Shown piece by piece: positions 3,783 to 61,365 of a stretch of DNA of 64,000 bases (its first letter is position 1; each line of letters begins with the position of its first letter). The translations under genes were made by a program, and so were the position numbers. Under the pieces are notes generated by a model. The model did not search any database, was not told the origin of the DNA, and worked only from the letters and a program-made list of their open reading frames with translations. This DNA comes from Diadema setosum (Eukaryota > Echinodermata > Echinoidea > Diadematoida > Diadematidae). The stretch lies in NCBI RefSeq assembly GCF_964275005.1, contig NW_027307657.1:350602-414601 (forward strand). The letters run 5' to 3'.

Positions 3783-4075
3783 GAGTTCGACAAAATGACC
3801 GACATCGACCAAACACCTTGTTTGAGAGTCTGGGTATTTTTGTTGGTTATGATGGTTCGTTAATCCAAAATAATTAACCTCCGTAACAATATTGAATGGT
3901 TCTCCGAATGGGTTCAGAGCACGTCTTGACAGCAGTCTCACATATTAAGCAAACATAGTAGCATGTTTGTCACCAATGCGTTATACCAAATTTATTAGGA
4001 ATAAACAGGTATATATTGGTTACGCTGTCTACAAAATTCAGTAACGATGGAAGGGCGTAAAGACGGACGGGGTCA
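3783..4075. other. No gene seen; contains a short dispersed repeat
   Basis: This spacer has no credible ORF. About 50 bases at 3899-3948 (around GTCTTGACAGCAGTCTCAC) recur at 38931-38980 in the same orientation, so a fragment of a dispersed repeat is present. Confidence 0.5.
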
Positions 4076-5054: not shown

Positions 5055-5251
5055 TTCATCAGGATGAAGTAACCCATTATCCCAACCAAATTACGGGTCC
5101 AATAATTGCCTCGATGGGGAGGTAGTCATTGGCTACCAACCAAATAACAATCAACGGGTGCCACGTAGAGTATGATTGCTTTCAGTACCTCTCTACTGGT
5201 CCCATTTATTAGTCATATGCCTACTTTCAGGCGAGTGAGATGTCTACGTGC

Positions 5252-5271
5252 ACACACACACACACACACAA
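5252..5271. repeat. (CA)n microsatellite
   Basis: Uninterrupted CA run inside the paralogous segment. A second impure (CA)n lies at about 5599-5640. The corresponding site of copy 2 (about 56140-56170) also holds CA-rich sequence. Confidence 0.8.
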
Positions 5272-5595
5272 ATATTGTTAGATTCAACACACATGCTACC
5301 GGATGTGATGCACATTTGCCCGTATTTGATATGATTATGATTTTACGGTTAACGTCGTGCCAAATTTCTTACAATAAGCCGGTATCTGTTCTTACTTGCT
5401 CGTTATTGCGATCGGAATCACGGGCCTGGATTTTCAGGTTAATCCCATGAATGCAGTTTACTAAGTAATTGACTCTGCTCATCTTACATGGCATACATTA
5501 CCGAAATATAGCGTGCCATCCTGTCATCAGGTTTGAATAGGGCCTAGATGCCCAACAAAAAATCACTGATATTTTTCCAACGTCCTCCCAAACCG

Positions 5596-5628
<33 letters not shown>

Positions 5629-5786
5629 TACACACAGACAGACTGTAAATATCCTAGATTTAAAAAAAAAATCAGTTTTCCTTGCTTTTACACAAAACAA
5701 CAATTATGCTCACTGCTTTGTCTCATGAACCATATTATATATATATATAATATATATTATATCAAGTCACCGTTGTCATTTTGATC

Positions 5787-14058: not shown

Positions 14059-14445
14059 ATACATAACACACCTTATTGTGAAAAGGCCATACAATACGCA
14101 AGCCAGTAGTCAGGTAGAACCGATGCGCTGTTATAGGGCCTATTTGGCGTTCGTGGTATGATTTGCCAATAATACAAAACAAAAGACACATAAAAAGATT
14201 CTACTCACCACTTTGTCTCATGAACCATATACGACGATCGTATTGACGTTTTAATCTACCACCATGACGTAAATAGAAAGCACTATAAACTCCAGTTAGG
14301 CCTATTTGGGATCATAGTAGACGAGCCTGCAGCTTTACACGCCTTTTTGTAAACAGGCCATACAACATACGCAAACCAATATAGTAGTCAGGTAGTACCG
14401 ATGCGTTCTTACGTTTGGCGTTCGTGGTATGATTTGCCAATGATG
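14059..14445 (+). repeat. Local tandem duplication within paralogous segment copy 1
   Basis: The words GGCCATACAA, CAGGTAG(A/T)ACCGATGCG, TTTGGCGTTCGTGG and ATGATTTGCCAAT occur twice (about 14082-14170 and about 14357-14445), with CTACTCACCACTTTGTCTCAT between them at 14202. Copy 2 has this stretch once (56230-56500). A unit of about 270 bp was therefore duplicated in copy 1 only. The first unit was later split by the two long inverted-repeat elements. Confidence 0.75.
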
Positions 14446-15180
14446 GTGTTATTCGTCATACAATTATTTCCCCATGTTATTTCTACGTCGCTACACATGA
14501 ATAATGGGACAGTTAATCGTGTCGACCATTGCTACCATGGGAACGACTGCGAACTAGAACGAGGCTTGCAGGGGTCGTTGAACATGAGAAATTCAAAACC
14601 TTTGTTGCAACTTTAGTCTGGGCACTATTAGCAACTGAATGGCATTCGCAGTATCGGATGAATACCTAAGTCTATATTAGAAGTGCAGAAAAAAAAAATG
14701 CTTGAATAGAAATCATGATTGTCAGTCCACGTATTGTAATCTAGCCGCGGCGGTGAAAACTCATGAAAAAAAAAATGTTTTATACTAGTCATGATTACAG
14801 GACATTTCCTTACCTCCCAACATTCTAACAAACATCACCCTGTCATGTGTTGTAGCTCCACATGGCTAAAAAAAAGGAGCCTTGGTGAGTTTGTTTAATT
14901 CACCTTCTTGCCTTCTCTCCTCAATAAAGACGATTAAATTGCGAGTTTGTACTAGCTGCCTCCAATCACTCTCGTCTTTACTCTCTCTATGCTGCTGTAG
15001 GTATTTCAATTTGTTTTGCTTTGATTTGGTTTATTCTTTGTACGGCATGCTTTAAAATAACATCAATTACCTTCAATGCCTTTAGCAGTGTATTATACAA
15101 ATTTCCCATGGCATGACACAGTAATACAGTAGTATATACATGTAGCTATTTTACACAATTTTAACAGTTTCCGTACTCTT

Positions 15181-22812: not shown

Positions 22813-23505
22813 AAGCTCTCTTGTTGTATTTTGTATTTATATAAGCGACTGGCAAGACAAGCCTAGCCAATTTGTCCATTTTTCAATGCATTTTGCATGC
22901 ATAAAGATTAACAGGAGGGCCAAACCCCAAAAAGTCGCTTACTTAACGAGTGAGTTGCACTCTCTCTACAAACTAAGTAGACCATGCTTATTTTCAAGTT
23001 TTTATTGTAACAAACAACATTCCACTGGTCTACCTCAAAAAATTTGTTGCAAAAGCCTCCAAATCCAAGATGGCGTCCAAGATGGCCGCCCTATTTACTG
23101 AATTTGTTATTTGAAAGATAGATTTTGATTGAAAGATCAGATTTCAACAAATGTGATGTCATATGAAAGAAAATAAAATTTTCTACAAGTTGATACCATT
23201 TTTGTGGGTTATTGTAATAAGTGGATTGAGATTTTAAGGAAAAAACACTCATTTTTTGATATTTTTCTGAAAAAAGGAAAATCATGAAAATGCTTGATTC
23301 AGCATAAATCAGAGAAAGACTAAAGGATTATCTTGAAACGTTTCAAGAATTTTGTTTGACATATGATTAATATTTGGAGAAAATTAGGGGTCAGTACCGT
23401 TTTTGGTTCAGGAGTTATAATGTCTCAAACTTGAAAACTCACTATGTAAAAATGGCCACTTTAGTTGTGACAATACCTTGTTGGTCGTAAAAAGAGCCTG
23501 CGCGC

Positions 23506-23577
23506 GCCAAGACTACTACACGCACCACTGACACTGGCGCTTGTAGCAGTGCCAGTGGTGCGTGTAGTAGTCTTGGC
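23506..23577. repeat. Hairpin with perfect 25-bp stem in the foldback left arm
   Basis: 23506-23530 (GCCAAGACTACTACACGCAC...) pairs exactly with 23553-23577. The inner part (CACTG...CAGTG) can extend the stem. The same palindrome occurs in the other arm (26803-26874) and in both arms of the second element copy (about 49462-49530 and 53036-53103). Confidence 0.85.
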
Positions 23578-26110
23578 AAACGCAGACATTTTCTTTGACA
23601 AACAAGGGTTTGTGCCTGCAAACTAATTTTTCATACCAAGTGGTAGCTCAGGTGACGCTGATTGCTATTATTTCAAAGTAGATTGTTCTGAAGCAGATGA
23701 GATGAAGCAAAACTATCTTTCAAATAGAGGTAGAAGCTTGAAACAACCTTGCTATAGAAAGTTTAAAACAAAATCTGGATCAATCACTCAAAAAATTCAA
23801 GATCGCAGGCCATCAAAGCTGACATAGTGTGTTGCGCCAAAGTAAATGTATCATTTCGATTTTGATACAATGTTGTCTGTTTTGCTGTCTATTTATATGG
23901 TTTTTTATTCTGAACATCTTAATGCTATTTCCAACCATCTTAGGTTTTTACGGAGACATTTTTTTCAGAATGCACCATGAATATTTCTCTAAAAAGTAAA
24001 AAAAAAAAATTGAATTAAAAATGTTTATGAAAACCATGCAGAAATTAACATCTTTCCCATATAATCAATATTTGGAGAAAATTAGAGGTCAGTATTGTAT
24101 TTGGTTCAGGAGTTATAATGTCTCAAACTTGAAATCCCATTTTACATAATATGCATTTACACGCATCTGTTCCCAAAAACGTCACAGAGGGTCAAATCCA
24201 AGATCGTGCTTACTTTTCGAGTTCCACTCTCTCTATAAAAAAGACCATACATAATATTAAGCATACTAAGCAATGTTCCGTAAGTACACCTCAATAGATT
24301 TGTTGCAAAAACCTCCAAAGTACAGATGCGGTCCAATAGGGCCGCCATTTTTATTGAAGTTAACATTTCAAACATAAAATTTGATAGAGACATTGGATTG
24401 CAACACATTTGATGTCATATGAAGGAGAGTAAAACTTCCTAAAAGTTGATACCACTTTAGCTGTGTATTGTGATAAACTGGGGGGGGGGGGGAATCCATA
24501 TTCTTATATTGTTTTGAAAAAAGGAAGAAATGTGAAAATGCATGATTTAGTATTTATCAAAGAAGAACTGAAGAATTATTTTGAAACCTGTGATTGAGAT
24601 TGAGATTTACTGAGATTGAGACATAATTCATATTTCTGGAATTACAGGCAATATCATACACTATTGACAAGTTAACGTCTAAAACTTGAAAAAATTACAT
24701 TTATGCATTATAAATTTTGCATACAATGTGTTTACATGGTCACATGTAATACTGTAACGGTCTAGTGACTTGCAAGTACCTGCAAACTAACTTTTCATGC
24801 CAAGTGGTAGGTGACGCTGATCGCTATTACTGTAGCATTTCATCATAGTAGATTGTTCTGAGGCAGATAAAATTGAACAGAAAGTATTTTCCAAAAAGAG
24901 ATAGGAGCTTGGAATTTGGCACAAATTTTGCCAATGTGTAATATTTAGCGATAAAAATAGTATCCACACAAAATTCAAGATGGCGGTAATCAATCGAGGT
25001 TGTCGTTCAAGGCATTATTTACCATTAGTGCTCGTAAAACAAAAACCCAGCTTTACTTAATCCTCAAACTAGTTCTAAACTGTGAGTTAGGGATAGAACA
25101 ACTAATGTACAAACTAAAATCAGTATAATTAATGCTAAATATTGTTAGATATACTAAATAGATCTGATAAGAATGTTTTTTTTTTTATATACTAAATTGT
25201 CAACAGTTATGGCTATGGTTTCTTGAAAAGCAATGGTGATATCTCCGTATGTTTTAGGCTTTATTATAATTTTTTTACATGGCAGAATGTTTTGTAATAC
25301 AACTAACCTGCACATATAAATCGAATGTGATATCTCTCCCAATGGTAGAATACCTTTAATGTGTTGCGTCAAAGTTAAATCTCAACTTATAACTTATAAT
25401 TTGATATATCTTTTTAACCTTGTTATATTGCTGTCTATTACATGTTCCTTTACATCCGAACGATATTGTGCTAGTGTAAACCATATTTAGGGTCTCTTTT
25501 TTTTTTCTTTTTTCTTTCTTTTTTTTTTTGGGGGGGGGGGGGGGGGCTCATTCCAGTGTTAGGGTAAGGCCCAATCTTTGATAAAAAAAGAAATGCTTCT
25601 CTATCAAAGATATGCTTTTTTACCTGTATGTTACTCTGCTGTTATAGAAACGCCTGAATGATGATGGTATATGTGTAATAATGTCTGATCCGTAGATGTC
25701 CTTGAAAGCCCTTCTGATCCGAACCCCCCCCCCCCAAGAAAAAAAATAAATAAATAAATAAAAAATCCGACATGGCGGCAATTTCTCAACTTTGTTGTGC
25801 GAAATGTGTTGTGCGAAATTACTTTTCAGTATGTTGTTCGAATAAAATTGTCCAAATTGATTATTCGTGCTGTATATTCACATTTACAAATAAGCATGCT
25901 GAAACTGTATTTTCTGTTACCAGATTTTTCTTACATTGTTTTAGGCTGATTTCATGTGGGTTATAGTGTCACAATTGATCTGAGCTTATGCCATTGGTAG
26001 ATGCTTTCCCATATTAGATATCAGGATCACTCGAGAGTGAAAATGTTCATTTTCATTCATTTTAGAGTGACCTCGGGGATCACTCGAAGAGTGACAAGTG
26101 ATCCCTAAGG

Positions 26111-26276
26111 CAGGGCTCGACACTAACGGTGGTCCGGTGGCCTGGGGCCACCAAAAACGCACGTCGGGCCACCAAAATGTCAGAAATGAAGAACATAGGT
26201 GGCCTGATCGGGCCACCAAAAAAGATCGGATATTTGCCTTTGGGCCACCAAAAATAAAAGTTAGTGTGGAGCCCTG
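26111..26276. mobile_element. 166-bp hAT-like MITE nested in foldback copy 1
   Basis: Ends CAGGGCTCGACACTAAC and GTTAGTGTGGAGCCCTG are inverted repeats with one mismatch. The foldback copy 2 has an uninterrupted CCCTGAGG at 52051-52058. Here CCCTAAGG precedes the insert and CCTATTAAGG follows it, an imperfect 8-bp duplication as hAT elements make. The inside is a GGCCACCAAAA/complement palindrome series. Confidence 0.8.
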
Positions 26277-27461
26277 CCTATTAAGGTCACTCTAAAATGA
26301 GTGAAAATGAACATTTTCACTCAAAAGTCACTCCAATTTCACTCTAAATTCAACGTATTCTTGTTATTCACTCCTCACATCAAAAGCAAAAACTTCCACT
26401 CGATTTGGGTTTTTTTTTTTCTTTTTCGGAGAGTAGAATATCACTGGTTCTAAAAATGTGTCCATAAAAACCTAAGACGGTTTAACATAGCACAACAGAC
26501 AACATTGTATCGAAAACGAAATAATACATTTACTTTAGCGCAATTTTATACACTATGTCAGCTTTGATGGCCTGCAATCTGGAATTTTTTGAGTGATTGA
26601 TCCAGATTTTGTTTTAAACTTTCTATAGCAAGGTTGTTTCAAGCTTCTACCTCTATTTGAGAGATAGTTTTGCTTCATCTCATCTGCTTCAGAACAATCT
26701 ACTTTGAAATAATAGCAATCAGCATCACCTGAGCTACCACTTGGTATGAAAAGTTAGTTTGCAGGCACAAACCCTTGTTTGTCAAAGAAAATGTCTGCGT
26801 TTGCCAAGACTACTACACGCACCACTGGCACTGCTACAAGCGCCAGTGTCAGTGGTGCGTGTAGTAGTCTTGGCGCGTGCAGGCTCTTTTTACGACCAAC
26901 AAGGTATTGTCACAACTAAAGTGGCCATTTTTACATAGTGAGTTTTCAAGTTTGAGACATTATAACTCCTGAACCAAAAACGGTACTGACCCCTAATTTT
27001 CTCCAAATATTAATCATATGTCAAACAATATTCTTGAAACGTTTCAAGATAATCCTTCAGTCTTTCTCTGATTTATGCTGAATCAAGCATTTTCATGATT
27101 TTCCTTTTTTCAGAAAAATATCAAAAAATAAGTGTTTTTTCCTTAAAATCTCAATCCACTTATCACAATAACCCACAAAAATGGTATCAACTTGTAGAAA
27201 ATTTTATTCTCTTTCATATGATGTCACATTTGTTGAAATCTGATCTTTCAATCAAATTCTATCTTTCAAATAACAAATTCAGTAAATAGGGCGGCCATCT
27301 TGGACGCCATCTTGGATTTGGAGGCTTTCGCAACAAATTTTTTGAGGTAGACCAGTGGAATGTTGTTTGTTACAATAAAAACTTGAAAATAAGCATGGTC
27401 TACTTAGTTTGTAGAGAGAGTGCAACTCGACCTCTGTTTTTAGCTTTTGGCCCCCCGGTTA

Positions 27462-41685: not shown

Positions 41686-42363
41686 ATGGACGGCGACACC
41701 GCCCCGTCGAACCTCGACATTCTACAAGCCATCAACGCCATACAGAAGAGAGTCGACCTCGCCTGCAAACACCAGTCATCGGACCTTCCCGTCTTTAAGA
41801 GCGAAGGCAACAAGCAGCAATTTGAGCACACCGCCAAAGTTGCTAATCTCATTGAATCCGCTCTTTCTTCTCTCGAAGAGGTCGACCCAAGCTCCGCCGT
41901 CCAGCACCTCAAGCAGGCGCTCACAGAGCTACATCAGCGCCAGAAGCTCATCAAAATAGCCGACCGTTCCCCCCTCAGTTGGTTGACAGTTAAGGAGTAT
42001 GTCGCAGACGAGCTCGCAAACGATTCGGGGGACGAGAAGCGTTTACGGAAGGCAGAGAAGGCAGCCGCCACCAAGAAATCAGAGTCCACCAAGAAAGCAG
42101 CCAGGGCACAGGCCCGGCCACGCCCATGTCCACGTTCTCGGGCTCTTCCGTACTCTTCTGCTCCTTGCGGCTACGCTTCCTTTCGTCGCTACACACCAAG
42201 GCCCTTCACCCCCGCATTCCGAGCAGAGAACCGCATTTGTTTCCAATGCGGTATCACAGGCCACGTTCGCACCAACTGCCCCTCCCTCAGAGCCAGCAGA
42301 CAGGCCTTCCGCCAGCTTCCCGGAGCCGGATCCCTCGTCGGTCCACCAGGAACCTCCAGCTAG
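41686..42363 (+). CDS. Gag-like protein with CCHC zinc knuckle
   Basis: A 225-codon ORF, intact, starting at the first good ATG after repeat A1 (context ACCATGG). The N-terminal half is acidic and helical in character (ALSSLEEVDP, HLKQALTELHQRQK). A basic lysine/arginine-rich linker follows at about residues 125-155. A zinc knuckle CFQCGITGHVRTNC (C-x2-C-x4-H-x4-C) lies at about residues 186-199. Such proteins package element RNA. Its end overlaps the RT frame, which is usual where RT is made by frameshift or reinitiation. It is the only unbroken ORF of the element. Confidence 0.8.
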   Translation: MDGDTAPSNLDILQAINAIQKRVDLACKHQSSDLPVFKSEGNKQQFEHTAKVANLIESALSSLEEVDPSSAVQHLKQALTELHQRQKLIKIADRSPLSWLTVKEYVADELANDSGDEKRLRKAEKAAATKKSESTKKAARAQARPRPCPRSRALPYSSAPCGYASFRRYTPRPFTPAFRAENRICFQCGITGHVRTNCPSLRASRQAFRQLPGAGSLVGPPGTSS

Positions 42364-42598
42364 ACACTGGGAGCATGCTGAGCCAGATCTCCAGACACCA
42401 CTTCCCCCAGGAGTGAAAGGTAGATTGAAACAATGTTTTTCATTTTGGGAGCAAGAACTTAAAGCCAGCAAATTCATTCTTGATTTGGTAAAGGACGGGT
42501 ATAAAATTCCTTTTGAGACGATTCCTCCCCCTTTTTGTGCCAAGAACTGATCGTTCTAGTTTAAAGCACCCCGACTTTGTGGAGTCGGCAATCTCTGA

Positions 42599-43193
42599 TT
42601 TGTTAAGAAAGAAGTGCATTGTCGAAGTTGACACCCGCCCAACGTGTTGTAATCCTTTAACTGTTTCCGAAGACAAGAAGTTACGCTTGGTTTTAGATTT
42701 GCGACATCCAAACAAATTTGTCAAGAAAATCAAATTCAAATACGAAGATTTACCTCATATCACTCAAGTTTTAGATAAAGATCAGTTTTACTTTTCATTT
42801 GATTTTGAATCCGGTTATCATCACTTAGACATATTCCCTCAACACCAGCAATACTTGGGTTTCTCATGGAAACACGCAGATTCCACTTTGAGATAATATC
42901 TCAAAGTGGAATCTGCGTGTTTCCATGAGAAACCCAAGTATTGCTGGTGTTGAGGGAATATGTCTAAGTGATGATAACCGGATTCAAAATCAAATGAAAA
43001 GTAAAACTGATCTTTATCTAAAACTTGGGTGATATGAGGTAAATCTTCGTATTTGAATTTGATTTTCTTGACAAATTTGTTTGGATGTCGCAAATCTAAA
43101 ACCAAGCGTAACTTCTTGCCTTCGGAAACAGTTAAAGGATTACAACACGTTGGGCGGGTGTCAACTTCGACAATGCACTTCTTTCTTAACAAA
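42599..43193. repeat. 297-bp near-perfect palindrome (X and X')
   Basis: 42599-42895 is the inverse complement of 42897-43193 around a single central A at 42896. I see one mismatch (GAAGACAAG against GAAGGCAAG). The left arm is the real RT sequence. The right arm is its inverted copy. Confidence 0.9.
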
Positions 43194-43259
43194 GGCCGAA
43201 TGGAAGTACAGTGAATTTATAATATTATTATAAATTCACTGTACTTCCATTCGGCCTTT
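43191..43259. repeat. 69-bp perfect palindrome (Y' and Y)
   Basis: AAAGGCCGAATGGAAGTACA at 43191 pairs with the segment ending CGGCCTTT at 43259, centre 43225. The right half is the RT frame (KFTVLPFGLSS-type motif B). The left half is its inverted copy, abutting the X' arm with AAA shared at the joint. Confidence 0.9.
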
Positions 43260-44699
43260 CTTCCGCATCCTATATTTTTACTAAATTGACCAGACCTCTA
43301 GTCTATCAATGGCGCTCGCAAGGTATTTCGTCCTTCATATATATTGATGACGGGCTCATTATTTCTCCCTCTCTCGGCGTGGCCAGTCTCAACGTGGCCA
43401 TAGTCCGCGATACAGTTGTTCGCAGCGGCTTTGTTTTCAGCGAGAAAAAATGTATTTGGCAACCTTCTCAAAGCATTTGCTATCTTGGTTTCATCATTGA
43501 TTCTAAAACGGAACAGTTTTACGTGCCGAAAGCTAAAATCGACAAACTCTTATCCTTGATAGATCAAATTCTGATTTTGAGTCGATCAAAAAACAAAGTG
43601 CCGGTCAAAACGTTGGCATCTTGTGCCGGTCATTTAATTTCCATGTCTCTTGCCCTTGGCCCCGCTTCTAGCCTCATGACCCGCGCATTGTATCGGGCCA
43701 TCGAATCGCGTTCTTTTTGGACTGATTCAATCTTTCTTCCTGAGCCAGCTTCAGACGAGCTGCATTTTTGGTTCGCTAACATTTCATCGTTCGATGGCAA
43801 CCCATTCAGGTTTCGTTTAGCTCCTACTATCCACGTGTATTCGGACGCGAGCGACATTGGTTTCGGGGGGTTCATCGCGGCCCCCCCCCCCCCCAATACG
43901 GTCTTTCACGGCGTTTGGAGCGAATCAGATGCAAAAAACAGTTGGCCACCGTTCATAATATTTTGTCGCAAGGCTTGACTATTTTTTCCACTCAGAAGAT
44001 TAAATGGTTCACAGATAATTCAAGCGTTCCTCGAATTATTAGGAAGGGCAGCGTGAAGCCAGATTTGCATTCTTTAGCCCTTAGCATATTCAATCTATGT
44101 AGAGCACACAATATTGTTTTATCTCCCGAATGGTTGCCTAGAATCGAAAATAAACTTGCCGACAGGATAAGCAGATATCGCGATTTCGACGATTGGTCTA
44201 TCGATCAACGGTCTTTTCTGTTTATCGATTCTATTTGGGGCCCTCATTCGGTTGACAGATTCGCTTCGCCTCAGAACACCAAGATTCCTGTGTTTAACTC
44301 CAGATTTTGGTGTAAGGGATCCGCCGGCATAGACGCCTTTTGCCAAGATTGGAGCGCAGATAACAATTATTTTTGTCCCCCCGTTTCTTTAATACCCCAA
44401 GTCATCAAGCGCATGGCTTCGTTCAAAGCCATCGGCACCTTGCTAGTTCCTAAATGGCCATCGTCTTCCTTTTGGCCTTTCATATGCCCGGACGATTTAC
44501 ATTTTGGTGGGCATGTGCACGATTGGAGGCTATCAGTGTATCATTCACTCCTCCTTCCTTGGGGGACTCTACCGTATTTTGCGAAAATCCTTCTTTCCTC
44601 TCCTTGGCACTGAGGTTCAACTTTAGGATTCCGCCTAGAAGAACCAGGCGCGGTTTTTGTTCCTCCGAATTAGGTTACTGCGCAGCATGCACCTAAAAT

Positions 44700-45070
44700 T
44701 TCAGAAGTGTTGATAGACTCGAATAATTTCCGATCGTTTGATTTCGACTTTATTGCTTCCTTTTGAGAGCCGAAAAGCAACGATTATTTTGATCGTTTAC
44801 CGGAACACATTACGCCTCCTTATTTACACGGCCGATTTGAGCGCCGAACGGCAGAACTTTTTGTTCTGTTTTATGGAATATTTTGGTCCATTTTCGCACT
44901 TAGCGAAACGTTGAGAGCCAGATTAATATTGGCCGATGCCAATTTGAGAGCATCAATTGTTCATAAAGCACACCCTTTTCTGGTGCCACAGTTCTCAGAG
45001 TTCTACTATCTTGAAGTTACGTCCTTCAGAATTTGCATGTCTTCTCCTTCCGTACTTTCTTTGGCGTTTC
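44700..45070 (+). other. Non-coding stretch between RNase H and repeat B1
   Basis: Short frames only (such as 44911-45204, which runs on into repeat B1). No methyltransferase motif of classical DIRS elements is seen. Confidence 0.5.
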
Positions 45071-45402
45071 TCGAGAGCGCGTGGTATGCTCAATCCAATT
45101 GCAGGGTGTTCACAAAATTCAACGTTTTCACGTGTCATGATTTCATTATGTCTGTGCGTGTGTCATCCGTATGCGTGTATGAGCGAGATAAAGAAAATAA
45201 ATGAACTTTCTTTCGGAGTGAGAGCGTAGCGGTAACGGAGATAGAAAGTGGAATTTATTTTCGCTAGCGAGCGCATACCTCTTCCTTCTGTTGCGCATTT
45301 TTTTTTTGTTGCGTAATTGTTCGCATTCTCCTCCTCGCCTGCTTATATATTCTCCTAGTTAGCCTTTCAGGCTTCATTCTCGGTCGAGCATTCCACCATC
45401 AC
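45071..45402 (+). repeat. B1-A2 junction repeats of the retroelement
   Basis: B1 45071-45249 matches B2 47574-47752. A2 45247-45402 matches A1. They overlap by AGT. B carries AATAAA (45196-45201), and A2 carries GCTTATATATTC, so the junction holds a polyadenylation signal followed by a promoter. Confidence 0.88.
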
Positions 45403-45589
45403 TCCCACCCAGCATACCCCTCCCTTGCAGTTAATGCTTGTCTTCCATATACTTTAGTATACTGACATTTTTACAAGTTTGCTTTGATCATTTCGATCAT
45501 CACATTTATGCTATTTTTATATTCCGCAAGATTGTTCCCAAGCAAGGTTGCTGGTCTGTCGTTCTTTTTTCCTTCTTGATTTCACAGGC

Positions 45590-46562
45590 GAATGGGCTAA
45601 GTACACCGCTTCCTTACACGATCCAGCCCTGCAACGTCTGGCAGCCGTAGATCTTCCAGCACTCCTCGCATCCGCCAAAGCCGATTCCACCACAAGGCTC
45701 TATCTCACGTATCTCACGTATCTCGCATCCAAGCATTCCAGCTTTCCCGGTCGCCCCTTTTCACCTCTCCCTCTACCTGGCGCACCTGGCAGCTACCGGT
45801 CCCAAGTCCGTCGCAGACCCAACAATAGCCGCCATCAAGTGGATTCACAGTTTAGCAGGTTTTCCGTCACCCACCGACGATTCCATGGTCAAGACTGCTC
45901 TTCAGGGTTTCAAGCGCCTGCATTCTTCTCCAACCTCACGCAAGTTACCGTTAACTCCCCATATTTTGCAAGAAATCTGGAAAGTGTACGGCCAAGCCAA
46001 CGCGTCTTTGGCGGATCTCCGGATCCTGTTCATTTCTTTTATCTCCTACGCCGGTTTTCTGCGTTTTGACGATCTCAAAAAGGTATCTCGAAAAAGCTGC
46101 ACCTTCTCGCAGGATTGTCTTAGTATCCACCTACCAAGTTCGAAATCGGATCAATTCAGACAAGGTAGCGACATAGTCATCGCCAGGACAGGCAAGGACA
46201 CCTGTCCAGTTCGCGTAGCGGAGCGCTATTTTGCCGCTCTCGGTGATCCTCTAGATTGTTCCCTCCCAGTTCTTCGTAGGTTGCAGGTCTCCAAGCGCGG
46301 CCTGATTCCCACCTCCCATCCTTTAAGTTACTCTCGCACTCGCGAGATCATATTGGATGCCTTTAAGCCTTTTGTGCCCGACATCTCAAGGTACGGGCTT
46401 CACAGTATGAGGTCCGGCGGCGCTACAGCCGCATTCAATGCTCACGTTCCTACTTTTTTTATTTCTAGGCAGGGTAGATGGAGCTCTGATAAGGCTCGCA
46501 ATAAATACGTGCAAATTGATTTAGAGTCCAAGCTATTAGCTTCCACCTCTCTCGGCATTTAA
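45590..46562 (+). pseudogene. Tyrosine recombinase (YR) of the retroelement, one frameshift
   Basis: The enzyme would integrate the circular DNA form by site-specific recombination. The N-terminal frame (EWAKYTASLHDPALQRLAAV) follows an acceptor-like TTGATTTCACAG at 45589, so the message may be spliced. The frame shifts near 45745-45765, where TATCTCACG is repeated, and continues through FISYAGFLRFDDLKKV (catalytic R), HSMRSGGATAAF (H-x2-R) and GRWSSDKARNKYVQI (catalytic Y), ending at 46562. The R-H-R-Y set is present. It lies between repeats A2 and B2. Confidence 0.85.
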
Positions 46563-48861: not shown

Positions 48862-51800
48862 TAACCGGAGGGCCAAACCCAAAAAACTCGCTTATTTAAC
48901 GAGTGAGTTGCACTCTCTCTACAAACTAAGTAGACCATGCTTATTTTCAAGATTTTATTGTAACAAACAACATTCCACTGGTCTACCTCAAAAAATTTGT
49001 TGCGAAAGCCTCCAAATCCAAGATGGCGTCCAAAATGGCCGCCATATTTACTGAATTTGTTATTTGAATGATAGAATTCGACAGAAACATCAGATTTCAA
49101 CAAATGTGATGTCATATGAAAGAGAATAAAATTTTCTACAAGTTGATACCATTTTTGTGGGTTATTGTGCTAACTGGATTGAGATTTTAAGGAAAAAACA
49201 CTAATTTTTTGATATTTTTCTGAAAAAAGGAAAATCATGAAAATGCTTGATTCGGCATAAATCAGAGAATGACTGAAGGATTATCTTGAAACGTTTCAGG
49301 AATTTTGTTTGACATATAATTAATATTTGGAGAAAATTAGGGGTCAGTACCGCTTTTTGTTCAGGAGTAATAATGTCTCAAACTTGAAAACTCACTTTGT
49401 AAAAATGGGCACTTTAGTTGTGACAAGACATTGCTGGTCATAAAAAAAGTCTGCGCGCGTTAAGACTACTACACGCACCACTGGCACTGGCGCGTGTAGA
49501 AGTGCCAGTGGTTCGTGTAGTAGTCTTGGCAAACGCAGACTCTTGCATTGACAAACAAGAGTTTGTGCCTGCAAACTAACTTTTCATACCAAATGGTAGC
49601 TTAGGTGACGCTGATCGCTATTATTTCAAAGTGGATTGTTCTGAAGCAGATGAGATGAAGCAAAAATTTCTTTCAAATAGAGGTAGAAGCTTGAAACGAC
49701 CTGGCTTTAGAAAGTTTCTAACAAAATTTGGATCAATCACTCAAAAAAAAAAATCAAGATTGCAGGCCATGAAAGCTGACATAGTGTGTTTTGCCAGAGT
49801 AATGTATCATTTCCATTTTGATATAATTTTGTCTGTTTTGCTAAAATGGTTTGTTTATATGGTTTTATATAAATTTGAAAATTGTAATGCTATTTCAAAC
49901 CATCTTAGGTTTTTATGGAGACATTGTTCAGAATGCACCGTAAATATTTCTCTAAAAAGTAAAAGAAAATAAAATAAATTAAAAATGTTTACGAAAACCA
50001 TGTAGAAATTAACATCTTTCCCATATAATCAATTTTTGGAGAAAATTAGAGGTCAGTATTGTATTTGGTTCAGGAGTTGTAATGTCTCAAACTTGAAATC
50101 TCATTTTACATAATATCATGTTTTTACACGCATCTGTTCCCAAAGATGTCACAGAGGGTCAAATCCAAGTTTGTGCTTACTTTTCGAGTTCCACTCTCTC
50201 TATGAATAAGACCATACATAAAGTTACTAAGCGTACTAAGCAATGTGTCGTAATTACACCTCAGTAGATTTGTTACAAAAACCTCCAAAGTACAGATACG
50301 GTCCAATAGGGTCGCCATTTTTATTGATTTAACATTTCTATTGATAGAGACATCGGATTGCAGAAACTTTGATGTCATGTGAAAGAGAGTATAAAAGCTT
50401 CCTAAAAGTTGATACAACTTTAGCTTGTATTGTGATAAATGGGGGGAGGGGGAGGAAATTCATATTTTTATATTGTTTTGAAGAAAGAATGAAATGTAAA
50501 AATGCATGATTTAGTATTTATCAAAGAAGAACCGAATAATTATTTTGAAACCTGCGATTGTGATTGAGATCTACTGAGAGGAGACATAATTCATATTTAT
50601 GGAATTACAAGCAATATCATACACTGTTGACACGTTAATATCTAAAACTTAAAAAAAGATATATCTATGCATTATAAATTTTGCATACAATGTGTTTACA
50701 TGGTCACATGTATACATGGTCACATGTAATACTGTAATGGTCTATTGACTTATAAGTGCCTGCAAACTATCTTTTCATGCCAAGTGGACAGGTAGGTGAC
50801 ACTGGTCGCTATTACTGTAGCATTTCATGGTAGATTGTTCTGAGGCAGATTAGATTGAACATTGAACAAAAAGTATATTCCAAAAAGAGATAGGAGCTTG
50901 GAATTTGGCACAAATTTTGCCAATGTGTCATATTTAGCGACAAAAATAGTATCAGCACAAAATTCAAGATGGCAGTAATTGATTGAGGTTGTCGTTCAAG
51001 GCATTATTTACCATAAGTGCACGTAAAACCAAAACCCACCTTTAGTTAATTCCTCAAACTAGTTCTAAACTGTGAGTTAGGGATAGAACAACTAATGTAC
51101 AAACTTAAATCAGTATAATCATTGCAAATATTATTAGATATACTAAATAGATCTGATAAGAACGGGGGTTTTTTTTATACTTAGCTGTCAACAGTTATCA
51201 TGGTTAATGGTTTCTTGTAAAGAAATGGTGATATCTTCGTATGATTTAGTCTTTATTTTAATTTCTATACATGGTAGAATGTTTTGTGATACAACCAACC
51301 TGCACATATAAATCGAATGTGATATCCCAATGGTAAACAATACATTATGTGTGTTGCGTCAAAGTTAAATCTCAACTTATGATTTAATATATTCTTTTAA
51401 TCATCTTATATTGCTGTCTATTATATGTTTCTATACATCCGAACGATATTGTATAGTGTAAACCATATTGAGGGTCTTTTTTTTTTTTTTTGCGGGGGGG
51501 GGGGGTGGAACTCATTCCAGTGGAACTCATTTTGGGTCACATAAGGCCCAATCTTTGATGAAAAGGAAATGCTTCTGTATCAAAGATATGCTTTTTTTTT
51601 TACTTGTATGCTACTCTGCTATTGCAGAAACGTGAATAATGATGGTGTATGTGTAATAATGTCCGTAGATCCTTGTCCTTGAAAGCCCTTCTGATCCCCC
51701 CTCCCCCCGGAAAATCCGACATGGCGGCAATTTCTCAAATTTGCCTTTAAATATCTTGTGCGAAATCATTTTTCAGTATATTTTTCGAATAAAACTGTCC

Positions 51801-53692
51801 AAATGTATTTTTTGTGCTGTATATTCACATTTACAAATAAGCATGCTGAAACTGTATTTACTGTTATAAGATTTTTCCTACATTGTTTTTAGGCTGATTT
51901 CATGTTGGTTGTAGTGTCATAATTATTGATCTGAACTTAGGCCATTTCATGCTTTCCCATAGTAGATATCAGAATCAATTTAGAGTGAAAATGTTCATTT
52001 TCATTCATTTTAGAGTGACCTCAGGGATCACTCGAAGAATGACGAGCGTTCCCTGAGGTCACTCTAAAATGAGTGAAAATGAGCATTTTCATTCAAAATT
52101 CACTCCAATTTCACTCTAAATTCACTGTTTTCTGTTATTCACGCCTTCAAAAGTGAATACTTCCACTCGATTTTTTCTCTTTTTTGGAGAGTAGAATATC
52201 ACTGGTCTTAAAAATGTCTCCATAAAAATCTAAGACGGTTTGAAATAGCATTACAATGTTTGAAATATGTAAAAACATATAAATAGATAGTACAACAGAC
52301 AAATTTTATGAAAATCATGATAATACATTTAATTTGGCGCAATAAACTATGTCAACTTTGATGGCTGTCATCTTGATTTTTTTTTTTTTTGTGGTTGATC
52401 TGAATTCTGCCTTAAAGGACAAGTCCACCTTCATATACATAAGGATTGAGAGAATGCAGCAATATTAGTAGAACACATCAGTGAAAGTTTGACTTTACTT
52501 TTTAAATAAAGTGCACATTTCTTCGACTTGCGACTGACGTATGTTAATGGTAATATTATTCCCCCTGCCTTCTGAAAGAGAGAAGTCATGTGTTCTTTTG
52601 TTATGCGAGAAAAATGGAAATATGTTGAATTTTCTTTATTCTTTCTTTATATCGTTGTACTCATGTGACATCACAAGCTATAGTAGTCTTTCCATCCAGC
52701 CATGACTAAGTAGAAACTTCAAAAATTCATAATTTTTTTAACAGATTGTCTGATTTTGCTCAAACTCTCACTGATGTGTTCTACTGATATTGCTGCATTC
52801 ACTCAACCCCCATGTCTATGAGGGAAAACTTGTCCTTTAAACTATCTATAACAAGATTGGTGCCAAGTTTCAAGCTACTACCTCTATTTGAAAAAAAAAA
52901 ATGCTTTATCTCATTTGCTTCAGAACAATCTACTTTGAAATAATAGCGACCAGCGTCACCTGAGCTACCACTTGGTACGAAAAGTTAGTTTGCAGGCACA
53001 AACCCTTGTTTGTCAAAGCAAGAGTCTGCGTTTACTAAGACTACTACACGCACCACTGGCACTGCTACACGCGCCAGTGCTAGTGGTGCGTGTAGTAGTC
53101 TTGACACGCGCAGACTTGTTTTATGACCAACAAGGTCTTGTCACAACTAAAGTGCCCATTTTTACAAAGTGAGTTTTCAAGTTTGAGACATTATTACTCC
53201 TGAACAAAAAGCGGTACTGACCCCTAATTTTCTCCAAATATTAATTATATGTCAAACAAAATTCCTGAAACGTTTCAAGATAATCCTTCAGTCATTCTCT
53301 GATTTATGCCGAATCAAGCATTTTCATGATTTTCCTTTTTTCAGAAAAATATCAAAAAATTAGTGTTTTTTCCTTAAAATCTCAATCCAGTTAGCACAAT
53401 AACCCACAAAAATGGTATCAACTTGTAGAAAATTTTATTCTCTTTCATATGACATCACATTTGTTGAAATCTGATGTTTCTGTCGAATTCTATCATTCAA
53501 ATAACAAATTCAGTAAATATGGCGGCCATTTTGGACGCCATCTTGGATTTGGAGGCTTTCGCAACAAATTTTTTGAGGTAGACCAGTGGAATGTTGTTTG
53601 TTACAATAAAATCTTGAAAATAAGCATGGTCTACTTAGTTTGTAGAGAGAGTGCAACTCGACCTCTGTTTTAAGGTTTTGGCCCCCCGGTTA
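48862..53692. mobile_element. Foldback transposon, copy 2 (arms of about 1.05 kb)
   Basis: Same orientation, ends and internal order as the copy at 22909-27461: ACCGGAGGGCCAAA at left, TTGGCCCCCCGGT at right, TA on each side, with a diverged inner copy of the arm (about 50040-50900). It carries an extra TTAA MITE (52412-52840) and lacks the 166-bp MITE of copy 1. No transposase is present. Confidence 0.88.
52412..52840. mobile_element. TTAA-flanked MITE nested in foldback copy 2
   Basis: TTAA at 52412-52415 and 52837-52840 bracket AGGACAAGTCCACCTTCAT and GGAAAACTTGTCCT, inverted ends. The same site in copy 1 is empty with one TTAA (26614-26617). Inner pairs include GTGAAAGTTTGA against TCAAACTCTCAC. 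Insertion at TTAA fits piggyBac-type transposition, although the ends do not start with the usual CCC. Confidence 0.85.
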
Positions 53693-55371: not shown

Positions 55372-57384
55372 TACTGCCCTGTGGTACGTCCCAAAATATC
55401 ACAGGACAATTCCTGTGGTACTGTCCTGTGGTACTGTCCTGTGGTATTTCCCAAAAGACCACAGAAACCTGCGGTACTGTCCTGGTGGTATGTCCCAAAA
55501 TACCACAGAACAATTCCTGTGGTACTGTCCTGTTGTAATTACTACACGAGTACCACAGGAATTTTTTGTAAGGGATATCATCAGTGAACTTATGTATTAT
55601 GTACCCCATTATCCCAACCAAAGTCCGGAGCCAATAAATTACTTTGATGAGGAGGAAGTCGTGAGCTACCAAACCAATAACAGTCAACGGGTTCCACGTA
55701 AAGGCCGATTTCGGTATACCTCTCAGCACTACTTGGCCCTTGTTTAACGCCATATATATTTGTCCTGTTAAGGCCTATATACCTTCAGGCCAGCAAGATG
55801 CCCACGTGAGATGTCTCCGTGCATACATTAAGATTCATCACACATGCTACCGGACGTGATGTTTTGCCTGTATTTGATATTGCATGATTTTACTGTTAAC
55901 GTCCCGCCAAATTTCATACAATAGACCGGTGTCTGATCTTGCTTTCTCAAACCCTTTGTACAATAAAACCGCCACCATTGAAGCGCAAGGCCAGTCATTT
56001 GAAATCTCGGACCTGAATGCAGTGTACTGAGTAAATTGACTCTGCTCATCGTGCATGGCGTACATTACGGAAATATAACATGTCATCAACTTCGATTAAA
56101 AAATATATATCGCTGGTATGTTTCGAACGTCCTCCATAACCACACAACACACACGTAGACACAACCACAAACATGTAAATGTCCTACATAGAACGACAAA
56201 ATAGTCGCCATTGTACCCCTTCACTTATGATAACAATTCTACTCACCACTTTGTCTCACGAACCATGAATTATGAAGTCATCAAGCGACGATCGTATTGC
56301 AGTTTTAATCTACCACCATGACCTCAGTAGAAAGCACCATAAACTCCCTGTTCAAGATTATACCATGGAGCTCCATGATTATACAGACAAGCCTGAAACC
56401 GTACACGCCTTATTGTGTACAGGCCATACAAAACACAAGCCAGTAGTCTGGTCCGTAGGGCCTACCGATGCGCTGTTACGTTTGGTGTTCGTGGTATGAT
56501 CATTTTCCTTTTGTTATTCCTATATTACGTCGCGACGAAGGAATAATAAGACGGTTGAATGCGTCGAAAACGACTGTGAAGTGGGGTGCTGCTCGTAAGG
56601 CCCTTTGAACACGAGAAATTGAAAGCCACTGTTACAACTTTACTCCGCGCAATTATTAGCAAGAAAGCGGTATTCGCAGTGTTATTTGGATGAATTATGA
56701 TCACCATCAGAAGTGCAGAAACATAACTGCTTGAACCAATGGCGTAAATCCGTACTGAGGAGTGGGGGGGATGGTCACCATCACCACGATTACAAGCCCA
56801 TAACCGGACGGGGGGGGGGGGGGGGAAGAAGCTTGGTGCCCCCCCCCCCCCCCACACACACACACTTTACAGGGACCGGATGTCCCACTCTTTTGCATGA
56901 AATATAAAGTGGGAGGAAAGTGGCAGCAAAAATATGAAGACTTTTTGTTCTTGTTGCTTTTTTTTTGTGCTTGTCAGATGACTTTCGGCGGAAAATCAGA
57001 CCTTTGTTTTTTAAATATCTGTGAGAGGGAGCGGAGCGACCGAACGGGGGGAGGGTGCGTAGGGGGGGGGGGGGTATCCCTCTCCCACACGAGGAAGATT
57101 TTGCATGTTCATACCTGAAATTCAGCGATCTGGTGCACACTTTTGGTGAAAATTTTCTTTTCTTTTCTTAAAAGAAAAATAAGAAAATGAAATATTTACA
57201 ATATATTATTGAAAGACTAAATCGTGGTATTTCAGCTCTTGCTCCGCCTGTGCGACATCACTGTGAAGGCCTACTAAATAATGGGGCCTATTACCGGCGA
57301 CAGGATTTGACCTATAGGAGGAGCGGTTATGTGAGGGAGCGAAGCAAACGGGGGGGGGGGGGTATAAATCTTTTTGTATTGAAA

Positions 57385-60185
57385 ATTTTGACATTTTACA
57401 GTCCAAAAACTGCCGTTTGTAGCTATATTTTCGCTTTGGAAATTAAGGGGGGCACACCGGGTGCAACTGCTGTCAACCACTGGCAGCAACATCAGGAGAA
57501 TGGCCGCTATTTGATAGCGATTAAATGCGAGCGAGCTTGAAAATTGTGACATTCTACAGTCTAAAAACTGCCGTTTGTCGCTATACTTTTTCGCTTTGGA
57601 AATTATGGGGGGGGGGGCGCCGGGCGCAACTGCTGTCAATCACTGGCAGCAACATCAGGAGAATGGCATAGCGGTCAAATGCGAGCGAGCGGAGCGAGCG
57701 AGCTTGAAAGTTTTGACATTTTACAGTCCAAAGATTGACGTTTGTGGCTGTATTTTTTCGCTTTGGAAATTAAGGGGGACCACACCGGGCGCAACTGCTG
57801 TCAATCACTGGCAGCAACATCAGGAGAATGGCATAGCGATTAAATGCGAGCGAGCGGAGCGAGCGAGCTTGAAAATTCTGACATTTTAGAGTCTAAAAAC
57901 TGCCGTTTGTAGCTATACTTTTTCGCTTTGAAAATTAAGGGGAGCCGCACCGGGCGCAACTGCTGGCAATCACTGGCAGCAACATCAGGAGAATGGCATA
58001 GCGGTTAAATGCGAGCGAGCGGAGCGAGCGAGCTTGAAAATTTTGACATTTTACAGTCCAAAGACTGCCGTTTGTGGCTGTATTTTTCGCTTTGGAAATT
58101 AAGGGGGGCGCACCGGGCACAACTGCTGTCAATTACTGGCAGCAACATCAGGAGAATGGCATAATGATTAAATGCGAGCGAGCGAAGCGAGCGAGCTTCA
58201 AAATTTTCACATTTTACAGTCCCAAAACTACCGTTCGTAGCTATATTTTTCGCTTTGGAAATTAAGGGGGGTGCACCGGGCGCAACTGCTGTCAATCACT
58301 GGCAGCAACATCAGGAGAATGGCATAATGATTGAATGCGAGCGAGCTTCAAAATTTTCACATTTTACAGTCCCAAAACTGCCGTTCGTAGCTATATTTTT
58401 CGCTTTGGAAATTGAGGGGGGCGCACCGGCCGAAAACTGCTGTCAGTCACTGGCAGCAACATCAGGAGAATGGCATAGCGATTAAATGCGAGCGAGCGGA
58501 GCGAGCGAGCTTGAAAAATCTGACATTTTAGAGTCTAAAAACTGCCGTTTGTAGCTATACTTTTTCGCTTTGAACATTAAGGGGAGCTGCATCGGGCGCA
58601 ACTGCTGGCAATCACTGGCAGCAACATCAGGAGAAGGGCATAGCGGTTAAATGCGAGCGAGCTTGAAAATTTTGACATTTTACAGTCCAAAGACTGCCGT
58701 TTGTGGCTGTATTTTTCGCTTTGGAAATTAAGGGGGGCGCACCGGGCGCAACTGCTGTCAATTACTGGCAGCAACATCAGGAGAATGGCATAATGATTAA
58801 ATGCGAGCGAGCGAAGCGAGCGAGCTTCAAAATTTTCACATTTTACAGTCCCAAAACTACCGTTCGTAGCTACATTTTTCGCTTTGGAAATTAAGGGGGG
58901 CGCACCGGGCGCAACTGCTGTCAGTCACTGGCAGCAACATCAGGAGAATGGCATAATGATTGAATGCGAGCGAGCTTCAAAATTTTCACATTTTACAGTC
59001 CCAAAACTGCCGTTCGTAGCTATATTTTTCGCTTTGGAAATTGAGGGGGGCGCACCGGCCGAAAACTGCTGTCAGTCACTGGCAGCAACATCAGGAGAAT
59101 GGCATAGCGATTAAATGCGAGCGAGCGGAGCGAGCGAGCTTGAAAAATCTGACATTTTAGAGTCTAAAAACTGCCTTTTGTAGCTATACTTTTTCGCTTT
59201 GAACATTAAGCGGAGCCGCATCGGGCGCAACTGCTGGCAATCACTGGCAGCAATATCAGGAGAAGGGCATAGCGGTTAAATGCGAGCGAGCGGAGCGAGC
59301 GAGCTTTAAAATTTTGACATTTTACAGTCCAAATACTGCCTTTTAATTGTGGCTGTATTATTTCACTTTGGAAATAAAGGAGAGCGCACCGGGGGAAAAC
59401 TGCTGGCAATTACTGGCAGCAACATCAGGAGAATGGCATGATGATTAAATGCGAGCGAGCGAAGCGAGCGAGCTTCAAATTTTTCACATTTTACAGTCCA
59501 AAAACTACCGTTCGTAGTTATATTTTTCGCTTTGGAAATTAAGGGGGACCGCACCGGGCGCAACTGCTGTCAATCACTGGCAGCAACATCAGGAGAATAG
59601 CATAGCGATTAAATGCGAGCGAGCGGAGCGAGCGAGCTTGAAAATTTTGACATTTTACAGTCCAAAGACTGCCGTTTGTGGCTGTATTATTTCACTTTGG
59701 AAATAAAGGGGAGCGCACCGGGGGAAAACTGCTGGCAATTACTGGCAGCAACATCAGGAGAATGGCATAATGATTAAATGCGAGCGAGCGAAGCAAGCGA
59801 GCTTCAAAATTTTCACATTACAGTCCCAAAACTACCGTTCGTGTAGCTATATTTTTCGTTTTGGAAATTAAGGGGGGCGCACCGGGCGCAACTGCTGTCA
59901 ATCACTGGCAGCAACATCAGGAGAATGGCATAATGATTGAATGCGAGCGAGCTTCAAAATTTTCACATTTTACAGTCCCAAAACTGCCGTTCGTAGCTAT
60001 ATTTTTCGCTTTGGAAATTGAGGGGGGCGCACCGGCCGAAAACTGCTGTCAGTCACTGGCAGCAACATCAGGAGAATGGCATTATGGTTGAATGCGAGCG
60101 AACGGAGCGAGCGAGCTTTAAAATTTTGATATTTTACACTCCAAAAACTGCCGTTTGTAGCTATATTTTTCGCTTTTGTTTGTCC
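57385..60185 (+). repeat. Satellite array, about 160-bp unit, 17 copies, with higher-order repeat
   Basis: Each unit has GGCAGCAACATCAGGAGAA, then AAATGCGAGCGAGC(GGAGCGAGCGAGC), a TTTTACAGTCC block, ACTGCCGTT(T/C)GTAGCTATA, TTTTTCGCTTTGGAAATTAA, GGGG and CACCGGGCGCAACTGCTG. Spacing is 150-173 bp. The block from about 58074 repeats with an offset of 629 bp at 58703 (four units), and part of it again at 59861. Frames stay open on both strands because the unit lacks stops in several frames. They are not genes. Confidence 0.9.
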
Positions 60186-60659
60186 CACTTTTATGGGAGA
60201 ACCATCCCCCCCCCCCCATCGACGCCTCTGCATATGAGGGTGCTTTTGTTAAGTGAAAGATCTGCTGCACACTCTTTGATGAATTAGGGATATACGTCAA
60301 TGTCAAAAGTGTACAAAATTTATCGAAAGGGATCCTGTATAGCGGAGCTTTTGCATGCTTATGATTGCAATACAACGATCTGGTGCATAGTTCTGGGGAT
60401 ATTTGGACAATTTTCCATTAAGAAATTTCGAGATTTGTCCTCATCTCTGGAATTGCTTGGGGGATAAATGATTTGTCCTACTAAACACTTCCAAAGGGGT
60501 GGGGCAAATGCTCTTTGCCCCCCCCCCCCCCCCCCGAGATAGATTTGACGCCCCTGATCTTCCCTGGGAATGCCCATAGATGTATCCTGACTGAGTAATC
60601 AGTCACTGTCGTTTCTCAGGAATGATTCAGGAAATGGAGGGGGTTCAATTATGACGATA

Positions 60660-60860
60660 TAGTTTTTGTTATTGTTTGTTTGTTTGTTTGTTTGTTTGTT
60701 TTCGTACATATTTTGCAGATGGTCCCCAGTTACTCGCGTCATAGCATGTTTACATGTAGGCCTATACTATTTGACGTTGTCAACGTCTGAGCCATACCTT
60801 ACAGTGACTGTATGTCGATGTTACTTTCTTCGCGAGCGAGCGAAGCGAGCGAGCGCTTGA
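60660..60860. repeat. (TTTG)n microsatellite and isolated GAGCGAGCG block
   Basis: GTTTGTTTGTTTG at about 60670-60700. At 60832-60853 the GAGCGAGCGAAGCGAGCGAG motif of the satellite recurs alone, outside the array but within the same element. Confidence 0.75.
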
Positions 60861-61365
60861 GAAAATTATGTATACATTTTCCTACAAGATAGAATACTGT
60901 TCAGCTATGTTACCTGTCTGAAGGCCGGCGTACAAACGTCATGCAATAATTATGTCAAAATTGTTGCAATCACATTTCTGCTTCCTCCATTTTTTTCCTC
61001 AAAATTCAGGGGGGGATGATTGTACAGGCCATCCCCCCCTCCTCCATTTCAGGGGGGGATATATCCCCCCCATCCCCCCCGGGATTTACGCCCATGGCTT
61101 GAACAGAGATTATGATTGTCAGTCTATACGCATTGTCATCCATCTGGCGGTGAAAACTCATGAAAAAGAAATGTCTTATTCTCGCCATGATTGGAGGACA
61201 TTATTTTAATCACCTCCCAACACTCACACAAAAATCACCCTGTCATATGATATAGCCCCGCATGGTCAAAGAATACACCTTGACGAGTTCCTTTTAATTC
61301 ACCTCATTACCTTCTCGCCTTAACAAAGATATTTTGCGAGTTTGTACTAGCTGCCTCCAACTATT

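What the first reader, a model, noticed from the sequence alone, without database searches (positions are those of the whole stretch)
56737..61096. A hAT-like transposon that carries a 2.8-kb satellite array, proven by an empty site in the window
The element has a perfect 8-bp target duplication (GCTTGAAC) and inverted ends. The paralogous segment keeps the unoccupied site (GCTTGAAT at 14700-14707). About two thirds of the element is a 17-copy tandem repeat. That makes it a vehicle that could seed satellite DNA at new loci. Satellites inside DNA transposons are known in principle, but an example with both duplication and empty site visible is rare and tells us the array moved as cargo or grew after insertion.
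Basis: partly seen in the sequence, partly recalled or inferred. Interest (0 to 1): 0.8.

Follow-up and report, generated by a model that had tools for sequence, protein, structure and literature searches.

The report
hAT transposon carrying a satellite array
This is a member of a young family of cut-and-paste (hAT) transposons that carries a tandem-repeat array as cargo, so satellite-like DNA is spread around the genome and its arrays differ in length from copy to copy; it is a clear new example of a known phenomenon.

Summary
Window 56737-61096 is a 4,360-bp element with an 8-bp duplication (GCTTGAAC), 15-bp inverted ends and a ~165-bp x 17 array; the paralogous segment (14198-14965) aligns straight across the insertion point. 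It belongs to a young high-copy family: 1,088 exact 3' ends and 492 exact 5' ends genome-wide, reversed controls 0. Of 23 elements examined, 22 have a perfect 8-bp duplication. All 21 array copies read in full carry the array (5-24 units); one more is 12.1 kb, an estimated ~63 units.

Units match by position across insertions, while units within one element are no more alike than units of different elements. Two copies at unrelated sites carry the same 15-unit array (8 mismatches in 4,065 columns). So whole arrays jump. Interiors differ between copies by blocks of units gained or lost; whether in place or around a jump is not settled.

One 8.6-kb element with the same ends and a perfect duplication contains a hAT transposase gene, but is composite. 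A related array lies in one diverged hAT-like element. Array-carrying transposons are known in Helentrons, foldback elements and MITEs; this is a hAT member.

The parts
56729..56736 (.). left 8-bp target-site duplication GCTTGAAC
56737..56751 (+). 5' terminal inverted repeat CAATGGCGTAAATCC (20 of 20 fetched copies start CAA, 17 of 20 read CAACGGCGTAAATCC, counted by eye)
56737..57378 (+). 5' non-array part (rich in G and C tracts), about 640 bp, matched in 20 of 20 fetched copies (a stretch is missing from L029's match)
57025..57041 (+). degenerate copy of the unit motif in the 5' subterminal region (288 bp from the end; found within 3 substitutions in 20 of 21 copies); a second degenerate copy lies about 600 bp from the end
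57379..60176 (+). tandem array, ~165-bp unit, 17.4 copies; unit-type order FEBEADBEADBCACAD
57808..58449 (+). first copy of a 4-unit block (BEAD), 3 mismatches from L041's single copy
58450..59078 (+). second copy of the 4-unit block, 9 mismatches from the first, 8 from L041's
60177..61096 (+). 3' non-array part, about 920 bp, about 95-97% identical over its main match in the 20 fetched copies
60832..60854 (+). 23-bp motif GCGAGCGAGCGAAGCGAGCGAGC in the 3' subterminal region; its 17-bp core is 259-270 bp from the 3' end in 21 of 21 copies; also in many array units
61082..61096 (-). 3' terminal inverted repeat (GGATTTACGCCCATG on +)
61097..61104 (.). right 8-bp target-site duplication GCTTGAAC
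14198..14965 (+). paralogous segment with the unoccupied site (GCTTGAAT at 14700-14707)

Best explanation
A non-autonomous hAT-type DNA transposon whose interior is a tandem array. Shown: short inverted ends, 8-bp target duplications, an empty site, many young copies, and the array in the same place and orientation in each of the 21 copies read in full. Shown for one pair (L034/L035): a 15-unit array present at two unrelated sites, nearly unchanged, so whole arrays travel. Shown between copies: the edge units keep their order while interior blocks of units are gained or lost, so copies range from about 1.7 to an estimated 63 units. Inferred: the ancestor of the sampled copies already carried several units in a fixed order (5' F-E-G-A-B-C ... 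A-D 3'); movement is by a hAT transposase supplied in trans, the gene in the 8.6-kb L045 element being the best candidate; the block changes come from unequal exchange, slippage, or template-switching repair after excision, either in place or around a jump.
For: Duplications: 22 of 23 elements perfect (window, L025-L044, L045, C13 copy). Array inside 21 of 21 array copies read in full, 5-24 anchors. Units: 237 of 245 anchor intervals used (8 interrupted ones dropped); mean distance within element 0.110, between elements 0.106; same first 5' position 0.051, same last 3' position 0.046; position effect reached in 0 of 2,000 shuffles from either edge. Unit maps (counted by eye): 13 of 21 begin F-E-G-A-B and 13 of 21 end A-D; type F (18 units) only at position 1; type G (17 units) at position 3, or at 1-2 in three copies that lack the first units. 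L034 and L035: 8 mismatches and 17 gap columns in 4,065, different duplications and flanks. Window and its closest relative L041 (0.8% in each end region) share the array's 3' half, but the window has two 4-unit blocks where L041 has one. C13:17597366-17609441: 12,076 bp, both ends, duplication CTATGTTC on both sides. Copies differ from the majority of the sample by 1.3% on average outside the array (21 copies). hAT transposase: L045 585-9149, same terminal sequences, GTTTGGGT on both sides, PF05699 and DUF4371 inside.
Against: The 20 fetched copies are those closest to the window's 3' end, so the sample leans to young relatives. No correlation between similarity of the non-array parts and of the unit maps over 15 elements (rho -0.01, p 0.49). 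None between array length and divergence over 21 elements (rho 0.06, p 0.81). The window's first 4-unit block is closer to L041's than to its own second block (3 against 9 mismatches), so that doubling is not simply an event after the window insertion. On C1, 10 of 29 unit clusters in the capped list have no exact 3' end within 6 kb (18 with one by the script, plus one it merged across an end); of two checked by sequence, one had a mutated 3' end and one broke off mid-unit in unrelated DNA. 12 of 43 exact 5' ends had no exact 3' partner within 30 kb. L042 has a 6-of-8 duplication. The 901-bp transposase piece searched has one match, its own, and the L045 element is composite.
Confidence: 0.92

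Rival explanations
1. The array grew independently after each insertion from one or two units carried by a small element.
For: Array lengths differ widely, the C13 copy has repeated large blocks (equal-scoring unit matches at spacings of 1,938, 2,118 and 2,760 bp), and the short L045 copy has only about 1.7 units.
Against: Units would then be closest within their own element; only 26 of 237 have all nearest neighbours in their own element, and position predicts similarity across elements. L034/L035 share one 15-unit array.
Confidence: 0.04
2. The copies are segmental duplications or independent satellite blocks, and the 8-bp matches are incidental.
For: Some copies do lie in regularly spaced segments (5' ends at C3:45226716-45273308 every 11.64-11.66 kb), and motif-bearing arrays occur away from this subfamily's exact markers (17 of 33 motif clusters in the capped C1 list).
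Against: Perfect duplications flush with the ends in 22 of 23 elements at different sites; a clean empty site in the window.
Confidence: 0.02
3. The hAT transposase gene in L045 has nothing to do with the family: the 8.6-kb unit was made by chance from an outer 5' end and a nested array copy.
For: The inner array copy (585-2143) lacks its own duplication; of 40 places scored (1,604 candidates) only L045's own matches past the junction at 2143/2144 by more than about 10 bp; the transposase piece searched occurs once; the outer 5' end shares only 34 bp with the array copies.
Against: The outer unit ends in the family's terminal sequences with a perfect 8-bp duplication, so it was most likely mobilised as one piece; the gene is of the superfamily that the 8-bp duplications call for.
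Confidence: 0.4

Closest known systems
Cg_HINE Helentron elements of the Pacific oyster (PMC7492417; abstract start and passages seen)
   Same: Non-autonomous DNA transposons with central satellite-like repeats of about 140-180 bp dispersed through the genome
   Different: Helentrons lack target duplications and prefer oligo-T; here 8-bp duplications and hAT ends. Their longest array in the clusters studied is 29 monomers; here one element with both ends has an estimated ~63.
Tetris foldback transposon of Drosophila virilis (PMC4079207; abstract and sections 12, 19, 20 read)
   Same: Internal ~220-bp tandem repeats that share a 37-bp stretch with the flanking domain, vary in number, and were amplified within the element to arrays of up to 66 copies
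   Different: Tetris repeats lie in its inverted repeats; here the array is internal, between 15-bp inverted ends with different subterminal regions. The authors suggest large arrays may disrupt Tetris; the 12.1-kb copy here keeps both ends.
Xmix and miDNA4 MITEs of Xenopus, DINE Helitrons of Drosophila (listed in review PMC9659126; passages seen)
   Same: Satellite monomers inside or derived from a non-autonomous DNA transposon
   Different: Other superfamilies (miDNA4 Tc1/mariner, DINE Helitron; Xmix given without one); in the table passages seen no hAT carrier is listed.

Membership tests
hAT superfamily | 8-bp target-site duplication | tested here: met
   22 of 23 elements perfect
hAT superfamily | short terminal inverted repeats beginning CA and ending TG | tested here: met
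   CAANGGCGTAAATCC-type 5' end and GGATTTACGCCCATG 3' end; that this form is typical of hAT is recalled
hAT superfamily | hAT transposase (Dimer_Tnp_hAT) in an element with the same ends | tested here: inconclusive
   found once, in L045 (PF05699 E 5.6e-10; DUF4371 E 2.4e-19), but that element is composite. Of the 40 hAT-domain matches only the two on C1 and C2 could be held against the capped list of 3' ends
hAT superfamily | weak target preference nTnnnnAn (recalled) | tested here: inconclusive
   T at position 2 in 9 of 22 and A at position 7 in 13 of 22, both together in 4 of 22
Helitron/Helentron with central repeats | no target-site duplication | tested here: not met
   duplications present
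Foldback element (Tetris-like) | long inverted repeats containing tandem repeats | tested here: not met
   the window self-comparison lists no inverted match over 120 bp between the two end parts; array units lie in one orientation
Classical satellite DNA | long arrays in heterochromatin or centromeres | not testable with these tools
   no chromatin or cytogenetic data; unit matches were found on many contigs

The most novel reading that the evidence does not exclude
The array is not passive cargo. Many of its units carry a 23-bp motif (GCGAGCGAGCGAAGCGAGCGAGC) whose 17-bp core also sits 259-270 bp from the 3' end of 21 of 21 copies and, in degenerate form, about 290-345 bp from the 5' end in 20 of 21. 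The array would then be a block of extra protein-binding sites that raises mobility, as has been suggested for Tetris and Galileo (PMC4079207, section 19), and related arrays would be shared between hAT families with different ends (L030:523-2725 carries a 78-85% similar array between CAGTGGCGTA-type ends). Against: 68 of 237 units hold only half the motif and 39 fit neither form, and the transposase-bearing part of L045 lacks it on the element strand.
Probability: 0.13. Interest if true: 0.7.

Novelty: new member of a known kind. Interest (0 to 1): 0.5.

Why it matters
Transposons have often been proposed to seed satellite DNA, but transport of an array and its later growth are hard to tell apart. 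Here duplications mark nearly every insertion read and unit types act as positional markers, so transport of whole arrays can be shown directly and the interior changes can be mapped. With hundreds of young copies the family is a natural series for measuring how arrays of 2 to about 60 units change, and whether long arrays still move. The estimated load is about 7,800 units or 1.3 Mb, 0.14% of the genome (extrapolated from the sampled copies).

Tried and rejected
Array grown anew after each insertion: rejected as sole account. Array length as a clock: no correlation with divergence. Unit map inherited in step with the end sequences: no signal over 15 elements. Motif as a conserved transposase site: weakened, since the transposase-bearing part of L045 lacks it and many units are incomplete. 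Unit derived from the subterminal regions: after the motif the 3' side scores above most shuffles (7 of 1,000 reach it) but the aligned stretch is displaced; the other three comparisons are at chance (333, 221 and 148 of 1,000). Motif count genome-wide: 5,619, but the reversed control has 933, the motif reading nearly the same backwards. Naming the organism: one paper search gave nothing decisive. Literature on hAT elements with internal arrays: I saw none in the listings (titles and starts of abstracts); some listed papers that hold such terms, for example PMC10794571, PMC12694884 and PMC2871265, were not read, so absence from print is not claimed.
Full report
Observation. The array runs 57379-60176, 17.4 units of about 165 bp, 64% of the element. 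The window's paralogous segment holds the empty site: the joined flanks align without a gap at the insertion point to 14198-14965, 529 of 711 columns identical (separate alignments). The paralogs are about 26% diverged while the sampled family copies differ by about 1.3% from their majority outside the array (21 copies), so the insertion is much younger than the duplication.

Family. The 3' 16-mer occurs 1,088 times and a 5' 29-mer 492 times exactly, reversed controls 0. Of 43 exact 5' ends on C1, C2 and the first 6 Mb of C3, 31 have an exact 3' end on the same strand within 30 kb, 29 within 8 kb, median span 3,750 bp. All 20 have both ends; lengths are 2,739-5,764 bp.

Duplications. With the window, L045 and a 12.1-kb copy on C13, 23 elements were examined; 22 have a perfect 8-bp duplication, and L042 has 6 of 8. 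The sites differ.

Array in each copy. The 21 array copies read in full have the array in the same place and orientation, 5 to 24 anchors each, 266 in total. The C13 copy (17597366-17609441) is 12,076 bp with both ends and the duplication CTATGTTC. Its two edges were read. In its unread middle, unit matches are listed at intervals, with three gaps of about 1.0-1.2 kb where none is listed; if the array is continuous it holds about 63 units by length (estimate). Its 5' edge begins with type F and then repeats B-C-A. Equal-scoring matches spaced 1,938, 2,118 and 2,760 bp apart suggest duplication of blocks of roughly 12 to 17 units.

Cargo or growth. I cut 237 of 245 unit intervals of normal length (8 interrupted ones dropped). 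Mean distance between units of one element is 0.110 and of different elements 0.106. Units at the first 5' position differ by 0.051, at the last 3' position by 0.046. The position effect is reached in 0 of 2,000 shuffles from either edge. Clustered into types, 13 of 21 maps begin F-E-G-A-B and 13 of 21 end A-D (18 of 21 end in D), with a variable interior; types F and G do not appear in the interior duplications (counted by eye). L034 and L035 have the same 14-letter map and differ by 8 mismatches and 17 gap columns in 4,065, with different duplications and unrelated flanks: a 15-unit array moved whole. The window's nearest relative by its ends is L041 (0.8% in each part). They share the 3' half of the array, but the window has two BEAD blocks (57808-58449 and 58450-59078) where L041 has one, and lacks the G-A pair. 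The window's first block is 3 mismatches from L041's and 9 from its own second block; the second is 8 from L041's. So the doubling may be older than the split of the two copies, with one block lost in L041, or the blocks drifted unequally; it is not clean evidence of growth after insertion. Other results against a tidy history: no correlation of map with end similarity (15 elements, p 0.49), none of array length with divergence (21 elements, p 0.81).

Are arrays only inside elements? An exact 27-mer of the unit occurs 5,034 times. It is present at 172 of 266 anchors of the read copies, implying about 7,800 units, 1.3 Mb, if the sample is representative. Of the other 10, two were read at the 3' side: L050 has the 3' end with a mutated terminus; L049 breaks off mid-unit in unrelated DNA, with further units and a 3' end about 9-10 kb on, as expected of a nested insertion (the last step is inferred). 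The other eight were not read.

Source of movement. A Pfam search found 40 hAT dimerisation-domain matches; only the two on C1 and C2 could be held against the capped list of 3' ends, and one of these lies 6.4 kb from a family 3' end. Reading L045 showed an 8,565-bp unit (585-9149) with the family's terminal sequences and GTTTGGGT on both sides. It contains open frames on the opposite strand with DUF4371 (E 2.4e-19) and Dimer_Tnp_hAT (E 5.6e-10), separated by gaps that could be introns. It is composite: positions 585-2143 are a short array copy with about 1.7 units that shares the 3' end, and of the 40 places scored only L045's own matches past the junction by more than about 10 bp. A 901-bp piece of the transposase region has one match, its own, and the C-terminal frame's protein relatives in the genome are 30-53% identical (24 matches with itself). 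It is a candidate helper, not a proven one.

A shared motif and a second carrier. A 17-bp core (GAGCGAGCGRAGCGAGC, within 3 substitutions) occurs in many units and near both ends of the element: 3' side in 21 of 21 copies, 5' side in 20 of 21 (L029 lacks it). It occurs 6 times in about 181 kb of flanking and window DNA, both strands. Four of the six are in L030, where an array 78-85% like this one (matches of about 400-660 bp) lies between CAGTGGCGTACC... (523) and ...TACGCCACAG (ending 2725), with flanking GATAGGAT/GATACGAG, 6 of 8. This looks like a diverged hAT family with a related array, from one locus. Among the first 100 exact 23-mer places, 17 of 33 clusters (64 of 100 places) are away from this subfamily's exact markers, many at 162-182-bp spacing or multiples of it; old or mutated copies of the same subfamily could also lack exact markers.

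Comparison. Satellite-like arrays inside non-autonomous DNA transposons are established: oyster Helentrons (PMC7492417, passages), Tetris (PMC4079207, abstract and sections 12, 19, 20), and Xenopus MITEs and Drosophila DINEs (PMC9659126, passages). What this case adds is a hAT vehicle with duplications at nearly every copy read, an in-window empty site, positional unit maps that show transport of whole arrays, and a 12.1-kb copy with both ends and an estimated 63 units against 29 as the longest in the oyster clusters studied. I rate it a new member of a known kind.

Noticed in passing
window 42599-43193: A 595-bp near-perfect palindrome (99.2%) inside the reverse transcriptase-like reading frame of a retroelement that also has a downstream frame resembling a tyrosine recombinase (41686-46562; naming recalled from the reading frames, not searched); either a real inverted duplication or an assembly fold-back.
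   Followed up: no
window 22952-27428 and 48862-53692: Two related elements with long inverted ends (about 940 bp at 97% and 836 bp at 95%), 86% alike over 3.2 kb.
   Followed up: no
genome C3:45226716-45273308: Five family 5' ends spaced 11.64-11.66 kb apart on one strand, as if a segment carrying the element had been tandemly amplified.
   Followed up: no
L045:3320-4402: The N-terminal reading frame beside the hAT transposase frames contains, by eye, four full and one partial copy of a ~42-residue repeat, i.e. a tandem repeat within the presumed coding part.
   Followed up: no
L045:9150-9200: The 51 bp beside the transposase-bearing element are 100% identical at 38 other listed places, so it sits in another high-copy repeat.
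   Followed up: no
L030:523-2725: A diverged hAT-like element with different ends (CAGTGGCGTACC) and an imperfect 6-of-8 duplication that carries an array 78-85% identical to this one.
   Followed up: partly
genome C1, e.g. 13221658-13223520, 15083641-15084512, 15970068-15971437: Clusters of the 23-bp motif at about 167-179-bp spacing (or multiples) without this family's unit 27-mer or exact 3' end nearby: probably related arrays in other hosts or in older copies.
   Followed up: partly
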